NCBI GenBank assembly: GCA_021201395.1
Contig: JAJQFB010000001.1
Location: forward strand, 1-39,093
Direction of reading: 5' to 3'
From: Clostridiales bacterium
GTDB taxonomy: Bacteria; Bacillota; Clostridia; Lachnospirales; CAG-274
Length of the DNA: 39,093 bases
Part shown: one piece after another, positions 18,197-39,045 of the stretch
Numbering within the stretch: the stretch's first letter is position 1
Layout: every line of letters starts with the position of its first letter
Translations under genes and position numbers: made by a program
Notes under the pieces: model-generated
What the model saw: the letters and a program-made list of their open reading frames with translations, nothing else
Database searches by the model: none
What the model was told of the DNA's origin: nothing

Positions 18197-18267
18197 AGTT
18201 GTAAAAAAAATAAGTTGACATTTTAAGGGCTTAGAGCTATAATAAACTTAAGAAAAAAATTTAAAAC

Positions 18268-18356
18268 TTAAATCCGGGGAGCTTTTACGGCTGAGAGGGA
18301 ATTTTTTCCGACCCGCAGACCTGATACGGATAATGCCGTCGTAGGAAGATGAGATA
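18268..18356 (+). promoter_or_regulatory. TPP riboswitch (THI element)
   Basis: Conserved THI-box pieces in order: CCGGGGAGC, GGCTGAGAGGGA, GACCCGCAGACCTGAT, CGGATAATGCCG, CGTAGGAAGATGAG. Binds thiamine pyrophosphate and controls thiC by transcription attenuation through the terminator at 18380. Confidence 0.97.
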
Positions 18357-18379
18357 TTTTTATAAATATATTTGTTTTT

Positions 18380-18480: not shown

Positions 18481-19770
18481 ATGGACGCCGCAAGGCAGGG
18501 AATTGTCACAAAGGAGCTTAAGGCCGTTGCCGAAAAAGAGGGGATTGAAATATCCGAGCTTACGGAGCTTGTTGCAAAGGGGCAGGTTTGCATTCCCTGC
18601 AACAAAGTACATAAATGTATAGAGCCAAACGGAATAGGCTCTGCTCTGAGAACGAAAATAAACGTCAATTTGGGCATTTCCCGTGACTGCAAGGATATGG
18701 ACGTTGAAATGGCAAAGGTTAAATCGGCGGTGGATATGGGCGCCGAGGCCATTATGGATTTAAGCTCTTTCGGGGACACGAGAAAATTCAGAAAGAAGCT
18801 TACCTCAGAGTGTCCTGCGGTTATAGGAACCGTTCCCATTTACGACGCTGTTGTATACTATCACAAGGCTCTGGGGAAGATTACAAGCGAGGAGTGGATA
18901 GACATTGTTAAAATGCACGCAGAGGACGGAGTGGACTTTATGACCATTCACTGCGGCATAAACAAAAACACGGCGGAAAGATTTAAAAAGAATAAAAGGC
19001 TTATGAATATTGTTTCGGGAGGCGGCTCCATTATATTTGCCTGGATGGAGATGACAGGCAGAGAAAACCCCTTTTATGAGCATTTTGACGAGATTTTGGA
19101 AATTTGCAGGGAGTACGACATAACCTTAAGCTTAGGCGACGCCTGCCGCCCCGGCTGTATAGAGGACGCAACGGACACAAGCCAAATTGAGGAGCTTATA
19201 ACCTTAGGGGAGCTTACAAAGAGAGCTTGGGAGAAAGACGTTCAGGTTATGATTGAGGGGCCGGGTCATATGCCGTTGGATCAAATAGAGGCCAATATGA
19301 AGATTCAGAAAGCACTCTGCCACGGGGCGCCTTTCTATGTTTTGGGGCCTCTCGTTACGGATATTGCGCCGGGCTACGATCATATTACCCCGGCCATAGG
19401 GGGAGCCATTGCCGCCACATACGGTGCTTCTTTCCTCTGCTATGTTACCCCGGCGGAACATTTAAGACTTCCCACTCTTGAGGACGTTAAGGAGGGAATC
19501 ATAGCCTCCAAGATTGCCGCCCATGCCGCCGATATAGCCAAAGGCATTAAAGGCGCCAAAGATTGGGATTATAAGATGAGCGCCGCAAGAAAGAAGCTTG
19601 ACTGGGATGCTATGTTCGGCCTTGCCCTCGACCCGGAAAAGGCAAGACGCTACAGAGCCGAGTCTAAGCCCGAAAAAGAGGATACCTGTACAATGTGCGG
19701 AAATTTCTGTGCCGTTAAAAATATGAACCGTATTTTGGACGGCGAAATTGTTTCCACATTCGATGAATAA
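18481..19770 (+). CDS. thiC: Phosphomethylpyrimidine synthase ThiC
   Basis: 429 aa from the first ATG, the short Clostridia form without the N-terminal extension. A radical SAM enzyme that rearranges aminoimidazole ribotide to hydroxymethylpyrimidine phosphate for thiamine. The C-terminal cluster motif CTMCGNFC is present, as are [15 protein letters not shown] ([11 protein letters not shown]) and [13 protein letters not shown] segments. Start problem: the strong GGAGGT at 18445-18450 is 31 bases too far from this ATG, and in-frame coding runs upstream as TSCTYTTQ before Met, matching the family's usual YTTQMDAAR opening. The codon at the right distance, 18457, is ACG, so the real start may be a non-AUG or mutated ATG there. 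Confidence 0.96.
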
Positions 19771-19863: not shown

Positions 19864-19898
19864 GGATAGGTAAAACCGCTCTATATTGAGCATTGAAT

Positions 19899-20328
19899 AT
19901 TTCAATTCACACCCCTGCGAGAGGGGTGACTTTATTATTCGCCCTTGACAACTTCAGTGAAGTCTATTTCAATTCACACCCCTGCGAGAGGGGTGACAAA
20001 TGAAGAATTTCGGCTTGACGTTTTGGAATTGATTTCAATTCACACCCCCGCGAGAGGGGTGACGAGAATGTTGTTGCCAGTGAATTGAGTGATGAAATAT
20101 TTCAATTCACACCCCTGCGAGAGGGGTGACGAAGTTTTTAGCGGCTTATATTGATGAGTGCAAAAATTTCAATTCACACCCCTGCGGGAGGGGTGACTAG
20201 TCCGGTTGAATTAAGATGTTTTCAACAAGAAATTTCAATTCACATCCCTGCGGGAGGGGTGACCCGTTTTGGATAAATATTTTTGCAAAAACACTTATTT
20301 CAATTCACACCCCTGCGGGAGGGGTGAC
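19899..20328 (-). CRISPR. Type I-C CRISPR array, 7 repeats and 6 spacers
   Basis: Repeats of 32 nt start at 19899, 19966, 20032, 20099, 20166, 20232 and 20297. Read on the minus strand (the direction of cas transcription) they go GTCACCCCT..AGGGGTG then TGAATTGAAAT: 2 nt, a 7-bp stem, a 5-nt loop and an 11-nt 5' handle, as in type I-C. Spacers are 35, 34, 35, 35, 34 and 33 nt (left to right). The right end faces the leader, so the newest spacer is 20264-20296. Repeat variants: the three leader-side repeats carry GCGGGAG where the other four have GCGAGAG; the repeat at 20032 has CCCCCG for CCCCTG; the one at 20232 has CACATCCC for CACACCCC. Confidence 0.99.
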
Positions 20329-20516: not shown

Positions 20517-20807
20517 TTAAAGCAGCAAGGGTTCTCCGGCTTGGATTTTTGAAGTTTTGCCCATTGTTTCTATTTTGTGTTTATAGGAATTGCCGAGGCG
20601 GTAGAAGCGAACAGAGTCTTTTTCGGAATCTATTACTTTTTTCAGGTCGTTTTTCAGCATTGTAAGCTGGGCGGCATCTACTAAAACCTCAAATACTGAG
20701 TTTTGTACACGTATGCCATAGTGTTCGCAGATTTTTGCTACTTTGCGAAGCCTTTTAGCTCCGGATTCACTTACTGCTTCCACATCATATGTAATAAGAA
20801 CAAACAT
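20517..20807 (-). CDS. cas2: CRISPR-associated endoribonuclease/adaptation protein Cas2
   Basis: 96 aa. Ferredoxin-like fold opening MFVLITYDVE with the conserved Asp, then KICEHYGIRVQNSVFE and a beta strand VRFYRLGN. It bridges the Cas1 dimers in the spacer-integration complex. Last gene of the cas operon, 42 bases after cas1, followed by the leader. Confidence 0.98.
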   Translation of the reverse strand: MFVLITYDVEAVSESGAKRLRKVAKICEHYGIRVQNSVFEVLVDAAQLTMLKNDLKKVIDSEKDSVRFYRLGNSYKHKIETMGKTSKIQAGEPLLL

Positions 20808-20849
20808 AGGTTTACCTCCGAAAAATAAGTATCTGCTGCTATCAAGTTG

Positions 20850-21878
20850 TTATCGCCAGACAAAGGGCGGATAGCGGTCTAAGTCACCCCTGAGAACCCT
20901 TGCAAAAAGCATAGCCTGAGTATGGGGGATTATGCCGATTTGAACCTTTTCGTTTAGGAATGGGTGGATAATGGTTGTTTCCTTTCGCTTCTGCCATGCG
21001 GAAATCAAGGTTCGCCTGCCCTTATCGTTTAAATAGACCTCTTGATAATTTGTGTCAAAATCCTTTTTTGTAAGCTGACCTTTGTTAAAAAGAGAAATCA
21101 CAAAGCGGTCGCAAAGAGGAGACCGCAGCTCCTCCATAAGGTCAAGGGCAAAGGACATTCGGCCGGGGCGGAGAGTATGAAGAAAGCCTGCGGCCGGATC
21201 TAAGCCTACGGTTTCCATGGCAGACTGAACCTCCCGGGTCAGCAGAGTATATGTAAGTGAAAGAGCCGCATTGACTTCGTTTTTAGGAGGGCGTCTGCTT
21301 CTTGTTTCAAATTTCAGCTTCGGGTCTTTGGCGCTCAGCATATCGTCAAACCGGGCAAAATAAACGGAAGCGGCGGCACCCTCCACACCCCTCATAGAAT
21401 CTATGGTTTCGCAGTCGGAAAGCTGTTTTGCCATTTGGCTTAGTATATTGCAGGCTGTTACAAGTGAATTCTGCTTTTGGGCGTTTTCGGTGTTTCTTGC
21501 ATATCTCAGAAGAACGGTTTTACTGTTATTGATTTTACAGTAAAGCAAGTCCTTTACAAAGTTCAGGGAGAAGTTCAAGTCATCCATAGCTTTATATTGT
21601 GCTTTTCTCAAAAGCACATTTCCGCTTACCGGGCCGCAGACCCGGGCGTAAAATCTTCCCGTAGGTGAGAGGAATGTTATTGTTATTCCTTTTTCGGCAC
21701 AGAAGCCTATGAGGGCAGTGGAAAAGGAGTTTTGACCGAAGCTTACTATAGCATCTATGTTGTGGGCAGGCACGCTCATTTTCTCTTCTCCGCCGACGTT
21801 TATGGCTATTGTTTCATTTCGGCAAAAAAGGCAGCTGTCCTGTGTCAGTACATAAAGTGTGTTTAAAAGCTTTTTCAC
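20850..21878 (-). CDS. cas1: CRISPR integrase Cas1 (type I-C)
   Basis: 342 aa, full length. N-terminal beta domain (LYVLTQDSCLFCRNETIAI), then the helical catalytic domain with the metal-binding Glu in RGVEGAAASVYF, the His of HTLRPGRMSFALDLMEE and acidic residues after it. Cuts and joins new spacers at the leader-side repeat with Cas2 and Cas4. Its start overlaps the cas4 stop (ATGA), which indicates translational coupling. Confidence 0.98.
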   Translation of the reverse strand: MKKLLNTLYVLTQDSCLFCRNETIAINVGGEEKMSVPAHNIDAIVSFGQNSFSTALIGFCAEKGITITFLSPTGRFYARVCGPVSGNVLLRKAQYKAMDDLNFSLNFVKDLLYCKINNSKTVLLRYARNTENAQKQNSLVTACNILSQMAKQLSDCETIDSMRGVEGAAASVYFARFDDMLSAKDPKLKFETRSRRPPKNEVNAALSLTYTLLTREVQSAMETVGLDPAAGFLHTLRPGRMSFALDLMEELRSPLCDRFVISLFNKGQLTKKDFDTNYQEVYLNDKGRRTLISAWQKRKETTIIHPFLNEKVQIGIIPHTQAMLFARVLRGDLDRYPPFVWR

Positions 21879-22558
21879 AGTTTGACCTCCTCTCTTGCGT
21901 CTTGTTCTAACTGCTTACAATAGTTTTGCGCCGACTGTTTTGTTTTTGGCAGACAATATTCCCTGATTGAACACCGTTTGCATTTCGGACTGTATTTAGC
22001 AGGCGGTATCTTGGCGTTGTCTCTGATTTTACGGAGTATATCTGCGGTTTCTTGTACTTTGCTGCGAAGTTCCGGCGTAAGAGTAACAGCCTGCCGTTTA
22101 TGGGAAGTAATGTAGAAAATCGCCCCCTCTCTAATCTTCGCTCCGTACATTTCTTCAAGACACATAGCCTGAGCACATAGCTGGATTTCATATTCCTCCT
22201 CCTGACGTACCAAACCGTGCTTATATTCAACGGGGTACAATTCAACGGCAAAATCGGCAGAGGGTATTTTACAGCCGGTTTCCGAGGCTTCAGCCTCTAT
22301 ACAGTCGCACTTTCCGTTTAGACCAAGTTTTTCCGAAAAAACGGGATATTCGTAAAGCTTAAGCTGTTTTCCTCTTCGTTCAATTCGCTGTGTGTGAACC
22401 CTTTCGTGTTCCGCCCGGCCCTTTGCCGTGTCGGCGCTTTCCTCCCAAATTCTTTCATTGAGAAGAAGGGCCGCACGTCTCAGGCAGTAGCCGGCCTGTG
22501 AAAGGAGAGGCAGAGGAAGATATTCCCTGTCATCATTCACAGCGGAACCAGCTTTCAT
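21875..22558 (-). CDS. cas4: CRISPR-associated exonuclease Cas4
   Basis: 227 aa. RecB-like nuclease with Asp in NGKCDCIE and the VEYKHG (E-x-K) motif; Cys25 and the C-terminal Cys193, Cys196 and Cys202 bind the 4Fe-4S cluster. In I-C systems Cas4 with Cas1-Cas2 trims prespacers and selects those with the right PAM. It overlaps cas7 by 26 bases and cas1 by 4. Confidence 0.98.
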   Translation of the reverse strand: MKAGSAVNDDREYLPLPLLSQAGYCLRRAALLLNERIWEESADTAKGRAEHERVHTQRIERRGKQLKLYEYPVFSEKLGLNGKCDCIEAEASETGCKIPSADFAVELYPVEYKHGLVRQEEEYEIQLCAQAMCLEEMYGAKIREGAIFYITSHKRQAVTLTPELRSKVQETADILRKIRDNAKIPPAKYSPKCKRCSIREYCLPKTKQSAQNYCKQLEQDAREEVKL

Positions 22559-23543
22559 CTTTCGGAAGGCTGCCCCAGCTTATAGGACCGTAAGGATTGG
22601 TTTGGAAGCCTATTTCAACACCTGACGGAGCCTTGTTAATGCTAACTTTTGCATCATAGTCTGTGAAGCTGCGGGGGAAGTCAACCTCCGGCTTCTTTTT
22701 TACCTCAACTAAGGAGAAAAGCTTGTGAGCCGGGGCACAGCCCAATTTTGCCTGACGGCTGCGCTGGGTTTCATCTGTGTCAGTGCCTACGTGCTTGAAA
22801 ATTATAAGGGGAGAAACAACAGCCATTTCGCCCTTGCTGGCGGAGTGATCATGTTCGTACATATTTAAAATTGCTTCAAAAAGAATCCTTAAATCTTCGT
22901 CGTCAAAGCCTGTTTCAGCTGCCAAATTTGCGCTTATGAACCCTCTGACCTCGTAAAGTCCGAAGGGTATAAACTGCTTGCGGCCCATTGTTCTGAGCTT
23001 GTCCTCGGAAGTGCTGTTTTCTAATTCAATATAATTTTTCACTGTTTCTTCTACATTGTTTTTAAGCTTGTCAGTTGAGGCCATACGGGTAATCGATATA
23101 TCTTGGGGCAGTATTGTATCTAAGCTTTTGCCGAATGTTATTTGAACAGGGCCTCTGACCTGACCGGCATTGGGACCTGTTGACATAACAGCACCGAATG
23201 TTCTGACATCGTAAAACATTTTGCATGCTTCCACTCTGCTTTTATAAATACTTTCTTTACCGGTAAATTTTTTACAGTCTTCTACTCCTGCTGCCCGTCT
23301 TGCTTCGGCAATGTGGCGGTTTATGTTTGTGGACTGCTGAATAATTATGTTCATACCGGGGCAGTTTTCATAGGCTGTGGTCACATAGTTGCGAATACGG
23401 CGTTTTGTGGCTACGTCGGTAATATAGCCCTTCATTGTCTGGGGGTCGATGCGAGGGGTGTTGCCCATATCGGGGTCGCCGTTTGGGTTTGCGTTTGTGC
23501 ATGAAACGTAGTACATAAATTCATATCTGTTTTTGATAGCCAT
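22533..23543 (-). CDS. cas7c: Cascade backbone protein Cas7c (Csd2)
   Basis: 336 aa. RRM-fold Cas7 with the family opening YEFMYYVSCTNANPNGDPDM, then PRIDPQTMKGYITDVATKRR. Several copies line the crRNA in the type I-C Cascade. AAAAGGAGG precedes the start. It sits between cas8c (14 bases) and cas4 (overlap). Confidence 0.98.
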   Translation of the reverse strand: MAIKNRYEFMYYVSCTNANPNGDPDMGNTPRIDPQTMKGYITDVATKRRIRNYVTTAYENCPGMNIIIQQSTNINRHIAEARRAAGVEDCKKFTGKESIYKSRVEACKMFYDVRTFGAVMSTGPNAGQVRGPVQITFGKSLDTILPQDISITRMASTDKLKNNVEETVKNYIELENSTSEDKLRTMGRKQFIPFGLYEVRGFISANLAAETGFDDEDLRILFEAILNMYEHDHSASKGEMAVVSPLIIFKHVGTDTDETQRSRQAKLGCAPAHKLFSLVEVKKKPEVDFPRSFTDYDAKVSINKAPSGVEIGFQTNPYGPISWGSLPKDESWFRCE

Positions 23544-23557
23544 TTTTAGTCCTCCTT

Positions 23558-25396
23558 TTATTGATTATCTGTTTTACCGGTCGTTTCAGCTGCCTTTTTT
23601 TCGGCATCTCTTTTCTTCTTTTCGGCATTGTATTCATTAATTATTCGTATAAGCTCTGCCTGCATTTGATAATAACCCAAAGAAAACAGGCTTTGCTGTT
23701 CAAGATTTAAGGTTGCGGGTATTTTATCGCCTATAGCCAAATAACAATCACTCAGCAGCTTTGTATATGTGTTTTTCCAAAATGTGCTTGTTATTTTTTC
23801 CTGATGGTGGGTTGACTGACGTGAAAGTGTGTCAATAACCAAAGCGGGGTTTTGACTTGCCAATGAGTAATATCTTGAAATCATAGATGCATTAATTTCG
23901 GGCATAACCATTTTTTGTATGTTTGCATATACGCACATCAAAGCTCCGCAGTGATATGCCGCATCGGGGTGTTTGGGGTTATATTCTTCCATTAAAAATT
24001 CCTCCTTGTTTTCCGATCTGTGTTTTCTCATAAGCCAGACCTTAAGCCACTGTACCGCTCTCGAATTGGGAATGCTAAGTGTTTTGTTCTCATCGTCTGT
24101 TTCCAACATTTGGGAACGAATGTAGGCAAGGGCTCTGACAGCGGCACTGTCCGGCAGGGGCGTTCCGCTTATAATCGATGTCAATGTAACAGCGGTTAAG
24201 CCGGAAAGCTCCTTTCCCATTCTTTCATCTGTTTTTTTCTTGCTGCTTTTCTGCTTTGTTTTTGTTAAAAGCCCTTGGAAGCGCCAATTAAGTGTATATG
24301 GTATAACCTTTCCCGAACCGCTTCGGTTAACAAGGGATAAGTCGCTGTTCCACAGATCTAAGCTTTTTTGTAAATCTTCGTAGGAGCCATGTTCATAGCG
24401 TCTGACCATAACTCTGCCGTTTACACCGGAAAGAAGCATTATTGTGTAAACACTTGCCAAAGCAGGGCTGTTTTCTCCTGTTGAAATGCTTTCTATTTTT
24501 TTATTTGCAAGTCGGCGTTCCTCATAGGGGTTCTTGCTGTCATCATATTCATCGGAATCATCTTCTTCCTCTTTTTCAACTTCAATGCCAAAACCGCTTA
24601 TTTCTATGGCAAGCATGTCGTTCTCTTCGGGAACTGGCTTGTCATACCAGTGAACAAACTTCATACCGGACAAAATTGGCGCATCCTTAAGTAGATTGTC
24701 AAGTCCGGCTTTTACATATGAAAAGGCTTCTTCCGAAACAGGGGCATTGGCGCTTTGCTTTAAATTGTATGAACAGAAGGAATTTTTATCGAAGCATATA
24801 AGTGAGCTGCCATTGCTGTTGCCACCTACATCCGCCAGACCTGTGACAGTTGGTACTGTGGCAACAGGAGCTGTTGGCTGACCGGTAATAAGGCAGAGAG
24901 TTTTGTTGTTATCGGTTTTAGTGCCTTTTAGCCGACTGAGGAAGCCCGGCCACCAAGTCTTAACGGCTTCAGACTTTAAAACAGAACCGCCGTTAACCTC
25001 AAAAGAAATTCTGTCAAGGGGCTTTATTTTTCTGTTTTTTGCTTCCTCGCAAATTTTGCTGAAGGTTTCTGTGTCTTCCAAGGCTTTAAGGCAGATAAGA
25101 AGATCAGGTTCAAAGCTGCCCCCTTCAGAGAGGGAATTTCTAAAAAATTTGCTTTTGAGCTGTGAGGGCTCTCCTAAGACAATGTCAGATTTTTCAGCCA
25201 AAATGTTGCTTTTGTCTTTGCCTCTGATAAGGCTGCCTGCATCGGGACACAGCACAGCCTCCGCACTTCCGGGAACAAAGCCCAAAAAGTCTCCGGCGGA
25301 AGAAAGGGAAATGTAATATTTTATTATTTTCGGGGCATATCCGGGAGGAACAGCCAAGCCCTCCCTTACTGCGTAATCATAAAGAGCCTTCAGCAT
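23558..25396 (-). CDS. cas8c: Cascade large subunit Cas8c (Csd1)
   Basis: 612 aa. Typical Csd1: MLKALYDYAVREGLAVPPGY at the start, CLITGQPTAPVATVPTV and a central acidic stretch (EKEEEDDSDEYDD), C-terminal helices with SLGYYQMQAEL. It recognises the PAM and recruits Cas3; in I-C an internal start usually also makes Cas11c from the C-terminal third, so that product may be hidden here. Start overlaps the cas5c stop by seven bases. Confidence 0.97.
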   Translation of the reverse strand: MLKALYDYAVREGLAVPPGYAPKIIKYYISLSSAGDFLGFVPGSAEAVLCPDAGSLIRGKDKSNILAEKSDIVLGEPSQLKSKFFRNSLSEGGSFEPDLLICLKALEDTETFSKICEEAKNRKIKPLDRISFEVNGGSVLKSEAVKTWWPGFLSRLKGTKTDNNKTLCLITGQPTAPVATVPTVTGLADVGGNSNGSSLICFDKNSFCSYNLKQSANAPVSEEAFSYVKAGLDNLLKDAPILSGMKFVHWYDKPVPEENDMLAIEISGFGIEVEKEEEDDSDEYDDSKNPYEERRLANKKIESISTGENSPALASVYTIMLLSGVNGRVMVRRYEHGSYEDLQKSLDLWNSDLSLVNRSGSGKVIPYTLNWRFQGLLTKTKQKSSKKKTDERMGKELSGLTAVTLTSIISGTPLPDSAAVRALAYIRSQMLETDDENKTLSIPNSRAVQWLKVWLMRKHRSENKEEFLMEEYNPKHPDAAYHCGALMCVYANIQKMVMPEINASMISRYYSLASQNPALVIDTLSRQSTHHQEKITSTFWKNTYTKLLSDCYLAIGDKIPATLNLEQQSLFSLGYYQMQAELIRIINEYNAEKKKRDAEKKAAETTGKTDNQ

Positions 25397-26037
25397 ATTA
25401 CCCCTCCTTTAAAAACTAAATCGCTGTCATAATCGGGAACTTCGATTACCCCCTGTTTCATAACAGCGTGATATAATGAAAGCTTTGTTTTTACTTTTTT
25501 GCTTACGGAATAATCGTGCAAGTCGAAAATATCATAAACCATATAACCTGCATCAAGATCAAAGGGAATAGGCTGTCTTATGCCGTCGCTTTCTTCAAAA
25601 TATGCGGCAAATTCCCTCAAGCCCAGCGAGGGCTGCATAAAGCACTTACCGCCTCTTATACGGCGAAGCGCCTGTTCGTAAAGCTGCTGCGGTGAGCCTT
25701 TAAAGCTCGGTCTGGGGCAGATTGTGGCGGTAATTCGATAGCGAACATCCTGCAGGGCTGTGGTTTGCCTTTGAGTTCTTTCATCGTCTGTGTAAATGGG
25801 TTTTAGCCGAACTGTTGCTTTAACCTCGTTTCGCTTAAAGCTTATGTAACGAATGGGGTTTAAGACCTCAATCCTGTTTATTTGCCAGTAGAACTCTACC
25901 GGCTTGCTGTAAATGGCAGAATACATCCCTCTTGCCGCCGAAGGAGTAGGAAAAGGATATGTCAGCCTTTCAACTTTACCGTAAGGGGGACCGAAACAGG
26001 CAAAGTCACCCCAAAATTCAACAGAAATTTGTTCCAT
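25390..26037 (-). CDS. cas5c: Cas5c (Cas5d) crRNA-processing endoribonuclease
   Basis: 215 aa. RAMP fold: ISVEFWGDFACFGPPYGKVE, then YPFPTPSAARGMYSAIY and the G-rich later part. In type I-C there is no Cas6; Cas5c cuts the repeat at the stem base and holds the resulting 11-nt handle. First gene of the cas5-8-7-4-1-2 unit, whose promoter and repeat-like leader lie at 26080-26179. AACGGAGGTG is about ten bases before the start. Confidence 0.97.
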   Translation of the reverse strand: MEQISVEFWGDFACFGPPYGKVERLTYPFPTPSAARGMYSAIYSKPVEFYWQINRIEVLNPIRYISFKRNEVKATVRLKPIYTDDERTQRQTTALQDVRYRITATICPRPSFKGSPQQLYEQALRRIRGGKCFMQPSLGLREFAAYFEESDGIRQPIPFDLDAGYMVYDIFDLHDYSVSKKVKTKLSLYHAVMKQGVIEVPDYDSDLVFKGGVIC

Positions 26038-26079
26038 TGGTTTAATTTCACCTCCGTAAATTAATGTTCAGTCTGTGAC

Positions 26080-26144
26080 GGAAAGCCGGCACAGAATATA
26101 TCATAAAATGGTTTCAATTCTCAGCTGACAATATTTCAGCTGTC
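26080..26144 (-). ncRNA. Candidate CreR/CreA-like crRNA: repeat-like hairpin plus spacer-like segment
   Basis: Minus strand from 26142: CAGCTGA-AATATTG-TCAGCTG is a 7-bp stem with a 7-nt loop, followed by the 11-nt handle AGAATTGAAAC (26121-26111). The true repeat has a 7-bp stem and the handle TGAATTGAAAT, so nine central handle bases are identical. A 31-nt spacer-like segment (26110-26080) comes next and is ended by GTCAC, the first five bases of a real repeat. Its first 18 nt, CATTTTATGATATATTCT, match the plus strand at 26145-26162 (CATTTAGTTATATATTCT) at 15 positions, over the -10 box of its own promoter. It could be a Cascade guide, a Cas5c-cleaved 5' leader, or both. Confidence 0.6.
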
Positions 26145-26179
26145 CATTTAGTTATATATTCTACAATAGTGCTTATCAA
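26145..26179 (-). promoter_or_regulatory. Promoter of the cas5c-cas2 operon and repeat-like RNA
   Basis: TTGATA (26179-26174), 17-bp spacer, TATAAC (26156-26151) on the minus strand, just after the cas3 stop. The expected start point, near 26144, falls directly before the repeat-like hairpin. The same 18 bp that include the -10 form an imperfect inverted repeat with 26093-26110. Confidence 0.7.
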
Positions 26180-26186
26180 GACCTTT

Positions 26187-28442
26187 TTAAAAAAAATAAT
26201 TTTTCGAATTTTGGCTTTGAAACTGTAAACCCATTGAATCGGTATATTGTGATTCTGCACCGGTATTTAATATGTAAACATCGCTTGAAGTTTTTCCCTT
26301 ATGGCCTTTTTCACGATAGTAAAGATATTCAACAGGATAACCGCTGTTTTCTAAATTTTCAAAGGTATTTACTGTAATAGGTGCCGCTTTCTTAAGCCAA
26401 GCGGCATCAATTCCATCTTCAAGGGGTTCACTTCGAAGTTCTTCATAAAACGCCATTTGCTTTTTGTAGGGAACCAAAGCCTTAAAGCCCTTATTGTTAA
26501 TAAGCTTATATTCCTTTTCTGTGGCTTTATAGTCCGTTCCCATTATTGCGTCTGTCAGCTTTTTGCTGTCATTTTGCTTTTCAAAAAGCAGCTCATAGTA
26601 ATTTTCTGTAACTGACGGATCGTTAATATCAAGCTCATTTTTTTGACTTCTTGAAAGTAAAACCTTAACCCTGCCTGCACCGGTTCCGTACCAATCGTCG
26701 GGGTAAAGCCTGCCCTCTTCTTCGGGCTCGAAAACAGTTACTTCTCCTGACTTCAGTTTACCGTTTCTGTTACATCTTCCTGCTGCTTGAATTACAGCTT
26801 CAAGAGGGGCCAAAGCCCTAAACAGTGTTTCAAAATCCAAATCAACACCGGCTTCTATACACTGGGTGGAAACAACCCGACAGCAAAGCCCGGCTTTTTG
26901 TCTTTCTTTGATTTCCGCTATAATATCCGATCTGTGGTCGGGGCAGAGATCGGTTGTTAAAAAATATGTACCTTCCCGGCCGCTAAGCTCCTTTATAGCC
27001 TCATAGGTTTTTCTGGCGTGTGCCCTCAAATTTACGATAATACAGGAATTATTTGATTTTGCGGCATCTTCGGCAACATCTTCCAAGGCTGTCGGTTTAT
27101 CCACAGACCATTTAACATCTGTACGCTTTAATGCCTTAAACATAAAAGCATTGTCCGGCATTATTTCCGTCAGCTTCCACTCCACATTTTCAATTGTATC
27201 AAACTTTGGCTGTGTGGCTGTGGAAAATACTATTGTGCGGCCGTAATGTTCGCAAAGCTCTTTTACAGCATAGATTGTTGCCCTTGTTAAATGCGAGGGC
27301 AGACTTTGGGCTTCGTCAAAAATAATTACACTGTTTGCAATATTGTGAAGCTTTCGGCAGTCTGTGGGCTTGTCGGCAAAAAGGGCTTCATAAAATTTAA
27401 CTGAGGTTGTTATTATAAAAGGAGCATCCCATTTTGCGGCGTGTTCCCTTGCGGCTTCATCAAGGCTGCTTTGGCTGTGATCCTGTAAAATATCGGGAAC
27501 AATTGAGGAATAAGCAGCGGCTGTCTGCTCTGTAAGGGATAAAAAGGGCAAAGCCAAAATGATACGTTTTTTCTTATTCTTAATGCAGTGGTGCAGGGCA
27601 AAATTAAGAAGAGCAAGAGTTTTTCCCGTTCCCGTAGGCGCAGTCAGCGTAAACAAACCGCTTCCCCGGTTTTCCCCGGCAGTACCGCAGGCTTCAAAAA
27701 GCTTGTTTCTTATGTCATTAAGCTCAGAATCTGAATCCGATGTTTTGCGTAAATTTTCCATATATGTATTTAAATTATTTAAAATAACCTCCGGCTTAAG
27801 CTCCAAAACCTCCGGCTCCTTTTCCGACGAAACGGTATAGTCCGCATCTACAAGGCAGGAAAACAACATTCTCGTATACATCATTTTTTTGACATAATAT
27901 TCAACGGTTTTGTTTTTATCCTCCAATATAAAGCTGAATTTTTTGAAATGTGACTTCCATTTCGGAAAATCCAAAACAAAGGCATGAAGAGCCTTTTCAT
28001 ATTTATCTTTACCCGACAAGGCGCTTGCTTTTCCGTCATTACAAACAACAGGATCCTCGTTTTTAAAATTATCATTTATGTATCCTTTAAGCTCATAATA
28101 AGGCTTAAGACTGCTGTGATGTGCGTTAACTGCTTCGATAGCTGCTTGATACACAGGAGAAATGTTTTTTCTTCCGATAAGCTTTGAAAGCAATGTTAAA
28201 ACAGTTCCGCCGCAAACGGCATGGTCAACCCCTGTTTTTGTTCCGTTGAGGACATCTTGAAAATCCTTACTATATTTTCCGAAATCATGAAAAAGTCCGC
28301 AAAGGGCAGCTTCGTCGCCTTGACCGAACTCACTGCCGTAAACCGCCGCCAGCTTCGAAACCTTTCTGCAGTGCTCCCCAACTGTCTCCCGGCTTCCGTC
28401 CTCCCTCGGAGACTTTGCGTAATATTCTTTAATTTCCGCCAT
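26187..28442 (-). CDS. cas3: CRISPR helicase-nuclease Cas3 (HD-SF2)
   Basis: 751 aa from the ATG at 28442, preceded by AAAGGAAG; a longer frame to 28508 adds 22 hydrophobic residues without a ribosome site. HD nuclease at the N-terminus (GEHCRKVSKLA, LFHDFGKYSKDFQ, VDHAVCGG), then Walker A TAPTGTGKT (about 267), FDEAQSLPS (about 377; DEAQ is usual for this subtype), STATQP and motif VI QAAGRCNRNG (about 551). It unwinds and degrades DNA marked by Cascade. It is separated from cas5c by 149 bases with a second promoter. Confidence 0.98.
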   Translation of the reverse strand: MAEIKEYYAKSPREDGSRETVGEHCRKVSKLAAVYGSEFGQGDEAALCGLFHDFGKYSKDFQDVLNGTKTGVDHAVCGGTVLTLLSKLIGRKNISPVYQAAIEAVNAHHSSLKPYYELKGYINDNFKNEDPVVCNDGKASALSGKDKYEKALHAFVLDFPKWKSHFKKFSFILEDKNKTVEYYVKKMMYTRMLFSCLVDADYTVSSEKEPEVLELKPEVILNNLNTYMENLRKTSDSDSELNDIRNKLFEACGTAGENRGSGLFTLTAPTGTGKTLALLNFALHHCIKNKKKRIILALPFLSLTEQTAAAYSSIVPDILQDHSQSSLDEAAREHAAKWDAPFIITTSVKFYEALFADKPTDCRKLHNIANSVIIFDEAQSLPSHLTRATIYAVKELCEHYGRTIVFSTATQPKFDTIENVEWKLTEIMPDNAFMFKALKRTDVKWSVDKPTALEDVAEDAAKSNNSCIIVNLRAHARKTYEAIKELSGREGTYFLTTDLCPDHRSDIIAEIKERQKAGLCCRVVSTQCIEAGVDLDFETLFRALAPLEAVIQAAGRCNRNGKLKSGEVTVFEPEEEGRLYPDDWYGTGAGRVKVLLSRSQKNELDINDPSVTENYYELLFEKQNDSKKLTDAIMGTDYKATEKEYKLINNKGFKALVPYKKQMAFYEELRSEPLEDGIDAAWLKKAAPITVNTFENLENSGYPVEYLYYREKGHKGKTSSDVYILNTGAESQYTDSMGLQFQSQNSKNYFF

Positions 28443-28854
28443 ATAAATTCTTCCTTTCGATATTAATATTATAAACTTAACTATACTTAAAATGCTGTCA
28501 AAAAGCAATAAGTAACTATCTGTTTCTAACTGTATTTATATTTTACCACTATAATATGTAAAAAATTTTACGCTTACAGCAAAAATAAAAAATATTTTTT
28601 GAATTTACAGTTGGTTATAATTTTGGATAAATCATATCATAGACAATTTTATGTTTTTTATTATAAACAGTGCTGAATATGAATAATATAGTAAAAAAAT
28701 AGGCAGGTAAGAATAATGTTTAGAATTAAAAAAATTACTGATATGTGTCCTTTTTCAGCAGAATGTTTACTGTGTTGATTTTCAGAGATTACCACAATAC
28801 TTTTGATTGAACCCACTCTTGATTTTGTCATATATTCGTAGGGTATCTCTCTTT
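28443..28854. other. AT-rich region upstream of cas3
   Basis: Very AT-rich; probably carries the cas3 promoter on the minus strand, though no single pair of boxes stands out. It contains one 20-codon plus-strand ORF, listed separately. Confidence 0.4.
28716..28778 (+). CDS. 20-codon Cys-containing micro-ORF, doubtful
   Basis: ATG at 28716 after AGGCAGGTAAGAATA; the peptide is MFRIKKITDMCPFSAECLLC, with a basic start and three Cys. GGCAGG is a poor ribosome site. No family recognised and no partner gene next to it. It may be chance. Confidence 0.2.
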   Translation: MFRIKKITDMCPFSAECLLC

Positions 28855-34244: not shown

Positions 34245-34434
34245 AATATTTTATGATAAAAGCCATAATATTCTCATAATATAGTAAAAAACAGGTGGTT
34301 TAGAATGACAACTAAAATCAGAAAATTTATGGGTAACATTTGTAAAAATTCCGTGGCCGTGTATGCTTCGGTTTTGGGAACTGTTTGCCTTGCGGGGTTA
34401 TTAGGTATAAGACCGCTTATGCTGTTGAAAACGG
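34245..34434 (+). repeat. Diverged direct repeat, copy 1 (promoter and 5' end of a deacetylase gene)
   Basis: Aligns with 38862-39045: AATATTTTATGATAAAAGC, then CATAATATAGTAAAAA, CAGGTGGTTTA and the first 40 or so codons. I estimate about three quarters of bases identical. The Rpn and TOTE genes lie between the two copies. Confidence 0.75.
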
Positions 34435-38861: not shown

Positions 38862-39045
38862 AATATTTTATGATAAAAGCTGTAATCTTTTCATAATATA
38901 GTAAAAAAACAGGTGGTTTATAATGACAAACAAAATCAGAAAATTTATAAAGAAAGTTCGCAAAAATTCGGCTGTTGTGTATGCTGCGGTTTTAGGAGTG
39001 ATATGCCTTGTGGGTTTATTTGGGATAAGACCTCTTATGCCAATG
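38862..39045 (+). repeat. Diverged direct repeat, copy 2
   Basis: Counterpart of 34245-34434. Same promoter-like and leader sequence, then the membrane-anchor codons of a polysaccharide deacetylase. Confidence 0.75.

What the first reader, a model, noticed from the sequence alone, without database searches (positions are those of the whole stretch)
26080..26179. Repeat-like RNA between cas3 and cas5c that matches its own promoter: a type I-C CreR/CreA-like autoregulator
Seen: on the minus strand a TTGATA-17-TATAAC promoter starts a transcript at about 26144 that opens with a 7-bp hairpin and the 11-nt handle AGAATTGAAAC, against TGAATTGAAAT in the real repeat with the same stem length. The next 31 nt act as a spacer would, and GTCAC (start of a real repeat) follows. 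The first 18 nt of this pseudo-spacer agree at 15 positions (1-5, 8, 10-18) with plus-strand 26145-26162, which covers the -10 box of the same promoter; the three bases before that target are GTC, one off the I-C PAM TTC. Known: in other type I systems (best studied in I-B), CRISPR-resembling RNAs guide Cascade with partial complementarity to repress a toxin or the cas promoter. Inferred: Cas5c processes this RNA and Cascade, without enough pairing for Cas3 attack, represses cas5c-cas2. When Cascade is lost or blocked, the operon would switch on.
Basis: partly seen in the sequence, partly recalled or inferred. Interest (0 to 1): 0.95.

Follow-up and report, generated by a model that had tools for sequence, protein, structure and literature searches.

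The report
CRISPR operon's own guide-RNA brake
Just in front of the cas5c gene of a type I-C CRISPR system sits a crRNA-like sequence whose guide part matches the operon's own promoter, and because guide and promoter change together in related bacteria it is likely a built-in brake that would let the CRISPR machinery shut down its own production.

Summary
In the cas3-cas5c gap a promoter reads into a 7-bp stem, a near-copy of the repeat handle, and a guide matching the opposite strand of that promoter at 15 of 18 positions. Alone this is modest evidence (2 of 2000 shuffled guides do as well; seed only 8/10). Relatives settle it: the element is in 11 of 15 Cas5c-matched loci, own guide-target seed matches total 102/110, and 0 of 100,000 guide swaps equal that. 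Mismatches concentrate at positions 6 and 12 (10/11, 9/11), as expected for type I Cascade. In 11 of 20 more distant I-C loci a divergent version occurs; PAM-blind target picking gives TTC in 11/11, and matching stops after position 17. Array spacers almost never do this (0 of 123; 1 of 194). It works like CreR, the crRNA-like cas autorepressor reported for I-B, I-E and V-A. Corrections: no second repeat follows the guide, a hairpin does; GTT/GTC in place of TTC is shared by the clade; the guide lies in the cas5c mRNA leader. I saw no I-C report in the papers searched, but the primary CreR paper was not held. Processing, loading and repression are untested.

The parts
26174..26179 (-). -35-like box TTGATA
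   Evidence: read from sequence; not listed by the scanner
26151..26156 (-). -10-like box TATAAC, 17 nt from the -35 box
   Evidence: read from sequence; not listed by the scanner
26145..26162 (+). target of the guide (protospacer-like), over the -10 box; 15 of 18 positions equal to the guide
26142..26144 (+). PAM position: GTC
   Evidence: read from sequence; GTT or GTC at the best PAM-blind site in 10 of 11 clade members
26122..26142 (-). pseudo-repeat stem-loop, 7 bp, loop of 7
26111..26121 (-). 11-nt handle AGAATTGAAAC (array: TGAATTGAAAT); predicted Cas5c cut at 26122/26121
   Evidence: cut inferred
26093..26110 (-). guide; 16 nt left open in the fold (26110-26095)
26073..26094 (-). hairpin after the guide, in place of a second repeat
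26049..26055 (-). ribosome-binding site GGAGGTG of cas5c
   Evidence: read from sequence
25390..26037 (-). cas5c, likely processor of the RNA
   Evidence: TIGR01876 above cut-off; PADLOC Cas5c
20517..25396 (-). cas8c, cas7c, cas4, cas1c, cas2: rest of the operon
   Evidence: Cas8c 191 bits against a cut-off of 219; PADLOC Cas8c and Cas7c
26187..28508 (-). cas3, upstream of the element
19896..20328 (-). CRISPR array, seven repeats

Best explanation
The leader of the cas5c-cas2 operon encodes a crRNA-like sequence, a CreR-type element of a type I-C system, whose guide matches the operon's own promoter and is therefore predicted to direct Cascade onto that promoter and repress it. Steps: the promoter at 26179-26151 would transcribe stem, handle, guide and hairpin as the 5' leader of the cas5c mRNA (sequence shown, transcript inferred). 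Cas5c likely cuts at 26122/26121 and leaves an 11-nt handle (inferred from the I-C repeat). Cas5c, Cas7c and Cas8c would assemble on it (inferred). The guide matches 26145-26162 over the -10 box (match shown, binding inferred). Pairing that is short, gapped at 6 and 12, and next to GTT/GTC in this clade would allow blocking without attack by Cas3 (inferred). Immune crRNAs or anti-CRISPRs that take Cascade away would release the brake (by analogy with CreR). Guide and cas mRNA would be one transcript, so each cas mRNA would carry one potential repressor guide.
For: Element in 11 of 15 Cas5c-matched loci. Own seed matches 102/110, swapped mean 5.79 of 10, 0 of 100,000 permutations reach it; without L014 and L015, which share a target with L012, own 84, best of 200,000 permutations 81 (printed before that script stopped with an error). 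Position 6 mismatched in 10 of 11 and 12 in 9 of 11. GTT/GTC at the best PAM-blind site in 10 of 11. A divergent version in 11 of 20 further I-C loci, TTC in 11 of 11, matches at 1-17 then 2-4 of 11 at 18-24, position 12 mismatched in 9 of 11 and 6 in 7 of 11. Array spacers with PAM and seed of at least 9: 0 of 123 and 1 of 194. Stems differ in sequence but are re-formed in many loci. No better second site in the own genome. In type I-B, spacers of 24 bp or less repress without interference (PMC10989794, abstract and section 10).
Against: No RNA or expression data. The window's own seed is 8/10, a score that 822 of 2000 shuffles reach; L015 (8/10, 9/18) and L016 (7/10 in the homologous register) are weak. 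L011, L018, L019 and L020 lack the element. The clade's working PAM is unknown: no array spacer target was found. No convincing stem in L017; implausible picks by the automatic search in L012 and L014, where the fold does show one. The promoter is not in the scanner's list.
Confidence: 0.85

Rival explanations
1. Post-transcriptional control only: Cas5c binds or cuts the repeat-like stem in its own mRNA leader and so sets cas expression; the guide match to the promoter is incidental.
For: Stem and handle lie in the predicted leader right before cas5c, and a hairpin lies near the ribosome-binding site. Could act in addition to the main reading.
Against: It does not explain co-variation of guide and promoter, the gaps at 6 and 12, or the divergent version, which is not in the cas5c leader.
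Confidence: 0.07
2. An RNA decoy of Racr kind that ties up Cas5c or Cas7 and dampens CRISPR activity without targeting DNA.
For: Racrs are solitary repeat mimics, with a type I-C candidate that inhibits I-C (passages of PMC10651486).
Against: The element sits in the cas operon; its guide matches the cas promoter and co-varies with it, which a decoy does not need.
Confidence: 0.03
3. A DNA inverted repeat used as operator by a protein repressor, resembling a guide and target by accident.
For: In the window's clade the guide and its target are inverted copies in A+T-rich DNA.
Against: The match begins exactly after the handle and has gaps at 6 and 12; in L069 and L070 guide and target are in the same orientation; PAM TTC in 11 of 11.
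Confidence: 0.03
4. Chance resemblance or a decayed array remnant without function.
For: The window alone is not far beyond chance in the seed.
Against: Swap test, PAM and array-spacer controls.
Confidence: 0.02

Closest known systems
CreR, cas-regulating RNA, types I-B, I-E and V-A (Liu et al. 2023, doi 10.1016/j.chom.2023.08.005; not held, known here only through passages of PMC13131331, PMC12737573 and PMC12948488)
   Same: crRNA-like RNA outside the array, short match to the cas promoter, predicted autorepression of cas genes.
   Different: Type I-C with Cas5c in place of Cas6 as likely processor; one pseudo-repeat and a hairpin in place of a mini-CRISPR; in the window's clade within the mRNA leader of its own target operon and with GTT/GTC in place of TTC.
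CreA of CreTA (passages of PMC9458426; abstract start of PMC8501985 in a listing)
   Same: Degenerate ectopic repeats, partial match to a promoter, Cascade used as repressor, target PAM TTC in haloarchaea.
   Different: CreA represses an RNA toxin; here the target promoter is that of cas genes, and in the window no toxin gene lies between.
RacrIC1 and other Racrs (passages of PMC10651486)
   Same: Solitary I-C repeat mimic that engages Cas proteins.
   Different: Viral and inhibitory; no self-promoter match is needed.
Autorepression of SpyCas9 (one passage of PMC13131331; details recalled)
   Same: Effector represses its own expression and is released by anti-CRISPRs.
   Different: Type II effector and another RNA.

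Membership tests
CreR | repeat-like element outside the array, near cas genes | tested here: met
   stem and handle at 26142-26111
CreR | limited complementarity of guide to the cas promoter | tested here: met
   15 of 18 over the -10 box; co-variation across 11 loci
CreR | canonical PAM at the target | tested here: inconclusive
   GTC in the window, GTT/GTC in its clade; TTC in 11 of 11 of the more distant version; working PAM of the clade unknown
CreR | mini-CRISPR with two repeats (described so in a review passage; CreA may have one or two) | tested here: not met
   no second repeat; hairpin. I therefore say 'works like CreR' and 'CreR-type', not a proven member
CreR | RNA made, processed and loaded in the effector | not testable with these tools
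   needs RNA data
CreR | effector-dependent repression of cas genes | not testable with these tools
   needs a reporter
CreTA (CreA) | toxin gene under the targeted promoter | tested here: not met
   in the window only cas genes follow; a small RNA toxin was not sought
Racr | solitary repeat in a viral genome, not associated with cas genes | tested here: not met
   lies between cas3 and cas5c

The most novel reading that the evidence does not exclude
Type I-C systems have their own class of autorepressor in which guide and target operon are one transcript: Cas5c cuts the leader of its own mRNA and so turns it into a short, hairpin-capped guide that sends Cascade back to the promoter with pairing gapped at 6 and 12, enough to block but not to trigger Cas3. 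In more distant I-C loci the same kind of guide, divergent and with canonical PAM, holds down a cas operon that can also carry a DUF3990 gene pair, joining CreR-like and CreTA-like control in one promoter.
Probability: 0.5. Interest if true: 0.85.

Novelty: new variant of a known kind. Interest (0 to 1): 0.76.

Why it matters
It would extend RNA-guided self-control of CRISPR to a type I subtype that has no Cas6, show that one pseudo-repeat and a hairpin can suffice, and give a sequence rule (seed match, gaps at 6 and 12, end near 17) that tells regulatory from immune guides. That makes it testable by computer how often CRISPR systems could sense anti-CRISPRs through loss of self-repression.

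Tried and rejected
Second repeat after the guide (GTCAC): rejected; it lies in a hairpin and is shared only with L007.

Other targets of the window's guide in its genome: 11 sites at up to 2 mismatches against 14 for the backward control; in the cas locus only the guide and its target.

PAM of the window's clade from array spacers: four arrays against phages and six spacers against viral contigs gave no match. The array of the window itself was not searched.

Rfam: no family at the element. Promoter scanner: did not list the promoter.

More members by genome draws: relatives (61 genomes), order (392), class (391), phylum (398) and one family (100). Of L023-L052 without L034 (29 loci, some with short upstream DNA), only L047 and L049 gave a handle with a match within 400 nt of cas5c.

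Papers: the primary CreR paper is not held. Searches showed, in listings and the passages I read, no description of a type I-C CreR; [quoted passage not shown]

Dropped rows: L034 (poor match); repeats of one place: L022 (same gap as L007), L050 (same as L019), L053 (as L049), L055 (as L047), L056 (as L040), L062 (as L045). Of the f6 loci, G246, G309, G382, G1195 and G1260 were not fetched with flanks; two searches found no handle in the upstream DNA held for them (short for G382 and G1260). In one search the rows 'ectopic' WIN and L014 were read one or two bases off by my coordinates; their values come.

Full report
What is there. The window holds a type I-C locus on the minus strand: cas3, a 149-nt gap, cas5c, cas8c, cas7c, cas4, cas1c and cas2 and a seven-repeat array. 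In the gap the sequence reads promoter (TTGATA-17-TATAAC), 7-bp stem-loop, handle AGAATTGAAAC, a guide, a hairpin, and the ribosome-binding site of cas5c.

Chance. In the window alone 15 of 18 matches is reached by 2 of 2000 shuffled guides and 2 of 208 other 18-mers of the region, but the seed score (positions 1-5 and 7-11), 8 of 10, is reached by 822 of 2000 and 91 of 208. The gap is A+T-rich. On the window alone I would call the self-match likely, not proven.

Relatives of the window. A scan of genome contigs with Cas5c gave 14 loci. In 10 of them the DNA before cas5c carries the same order of parts; L011, L018, L019 and L020 do not. With the window that is 11 of 15. A PAM-blind search found the best site for each guide: in 10 of 11 it lies on the opposite strand and is preceded by GTT or GTC. 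L016 is the exception; in its homologous register it has 7 of 10 with GTC. Seed matches sum to 102 of 110 for own pairs and average 5.79 of 10 when guides are swapped; none of 100,000 permutations reaches 102. L012, L014 and L015 share one target, so the loci are not all independent; without L014 and L015 the result stands (own 84, best of 200,000 permutations 81). By position, 1-5 and 7-11 match in 9-11 of 11, position 6 in 1, position 12 in 2, and 13-18 in 8, 7, 7, 5, 4 and 6. L007 against the window shows it simply: guide CATTT against AGTTT, target CATTT against AGTTT. Not every locus is strong taken alone: L009, L015 and L016 are within reach of shuffles.

A second arrangement. I fetched 20 more distant I-C loci with flanks: 19 of the family called f6, and one, L088, of f2. 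One search listed 105 handles outside the main arrays; by my reading 15 lie outside any array. Eleven of these 15, in 11 of the 20 loci, have a seed match of 9 or 10 to a nearby site; L070 at 17004, L079, L082 at 10221 and L084 at 15931 do not have one with TTC. The site was picked by match alone, and all 11 have TTC, the I-C PAM (start of the abstract of PMC8406640 in the listing). None of the other 90 handles gave TTC (my reading). The element is divergent from cas5c in all 11. Matches by position are 11, 11, 11, 11, 11, 4, 11, 10, 11, 11, 10, 2, 10, 10, 9, 11, 8 for 1-17 and then 2-4 of 11. The high seed values are by selection, and the total broke ties; the PAM, the gaps at 6 and 12 and the end near 17 were not selected for. 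Array spacers tested against their own cas promoter region gave PAM and a seed of at least 9 in 1 of 194 here (no spacers were read for L076) and in 0 of 123 for seven loci of the window's clade. A looser search also listed matches at unrelated handle-like words, with mixed PAMs.

Shape of the RNA. The stem differs in sequence between loci but is re-formed in many: CAGCTGA/TCAGCTG in the window, CACCTGA/TTAGGTG in L007, CAGGAT/ATCCTG in L071, CAGGT/ACCTG in L076. In L012, L014 and L017 the automatic search picked implausible stems; the fold shows one of 6-7 bp in L012 and L014 but none convincing in L017. L009, L010 and L013 need loops of 31-48 nt, and L082 has only 4 bp with a loop of 18. After the guide, which leaves about 14-23 nt open where the fold is clear (not so in L015), comes a hairpin, not a second repeat. 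Hairpins follow in the second arrangement too, in L069 and L082 with a T-run as in terminators.

How it most likely works. Shown: the parts, co-variation, PAM pattern, gapped pairing. Inferred: transcription, the Cas5c cut at 26122/26121, loading, binding, repression. Each Cas7f binds 6 nt of RNA (legend passage in PMC10651486), and free positions 6 and 12 are those expected to be flipped out in type I complexes (recalled). In a type I-B system spacers of 24 bp or less repress without interference (PMC10989794, abstract and section 10), so short pairing fits a brake that does not cut. In the window the target covers the -10 box. Since the guide lies in the predicted leader of the cas5c mRNA, a cut by Cas5c would make a guide and a trimmed mRNA at one stroke; this is the least tested and most original part.

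What is known. CreRs that repress cas genes are reported for types I-B, I-E and V-A (passage in PMC13131331); [quoted passage not shown] The primary paper was not held. The searches showed no I-C case in what I read; the primary paper could hold one. I rate this a new variant: same principle; other subtype and likely processor, one pseudo-repeat, hairpin end, leader position, GTT/GTC.

Weak points. No RNA data; the window's seed is less perfect than its sister's; two of eleven clade members are weak; the clade's working PAM is unknown.

Noticed in passing
L075, L076, L079, L080, L081, L086, L087 (both genes) and L073 (second gene only), between cas3 and cas5c: A DUF3990 gene (PF13151; PADLOC PDC-M10A) and a partner (PDC-M10B) sit before cas5c in 8 of 20 loci; in six of the eight (not L079, L081) the ectopic guide matches a site upstream of them, so it would hold down this candidate defence pair together with the cas genes (families tested on L080 and L086 in Pfam, on L080 in PADLOC). 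That DUF3990 resembles ADP-ribosyltransferases is recalled.
   Followed up: partly
L082, 3768-3898: Here the element and its target lie in front of cas3, not between cas3 and cas5c.
   Followed up: partly
L079 at 5710, minus strand: An ectopic handle GGATTGAAAT with no seed match of 9 or more within 1200 nt: a guide with another target, or a decayed one.
   Followed up: no
window 18265-18364, plus strand: TPP riboswitch, 71.7 bits against a gathering score of 54.3, before the reading frame at 18481-19770.
   Followed up: no
window 34245-34422 and 38862-39040: Repeated stretches, 80% and 91% identical in families D2 and D3, 4.6 kb apart.
   Followed up: no
L085, 1189-4674 and 13133-13859: Two arrays with different repeat stems but the same handle GGATTGAAAT beside one I-C locus.
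   Followed up: no
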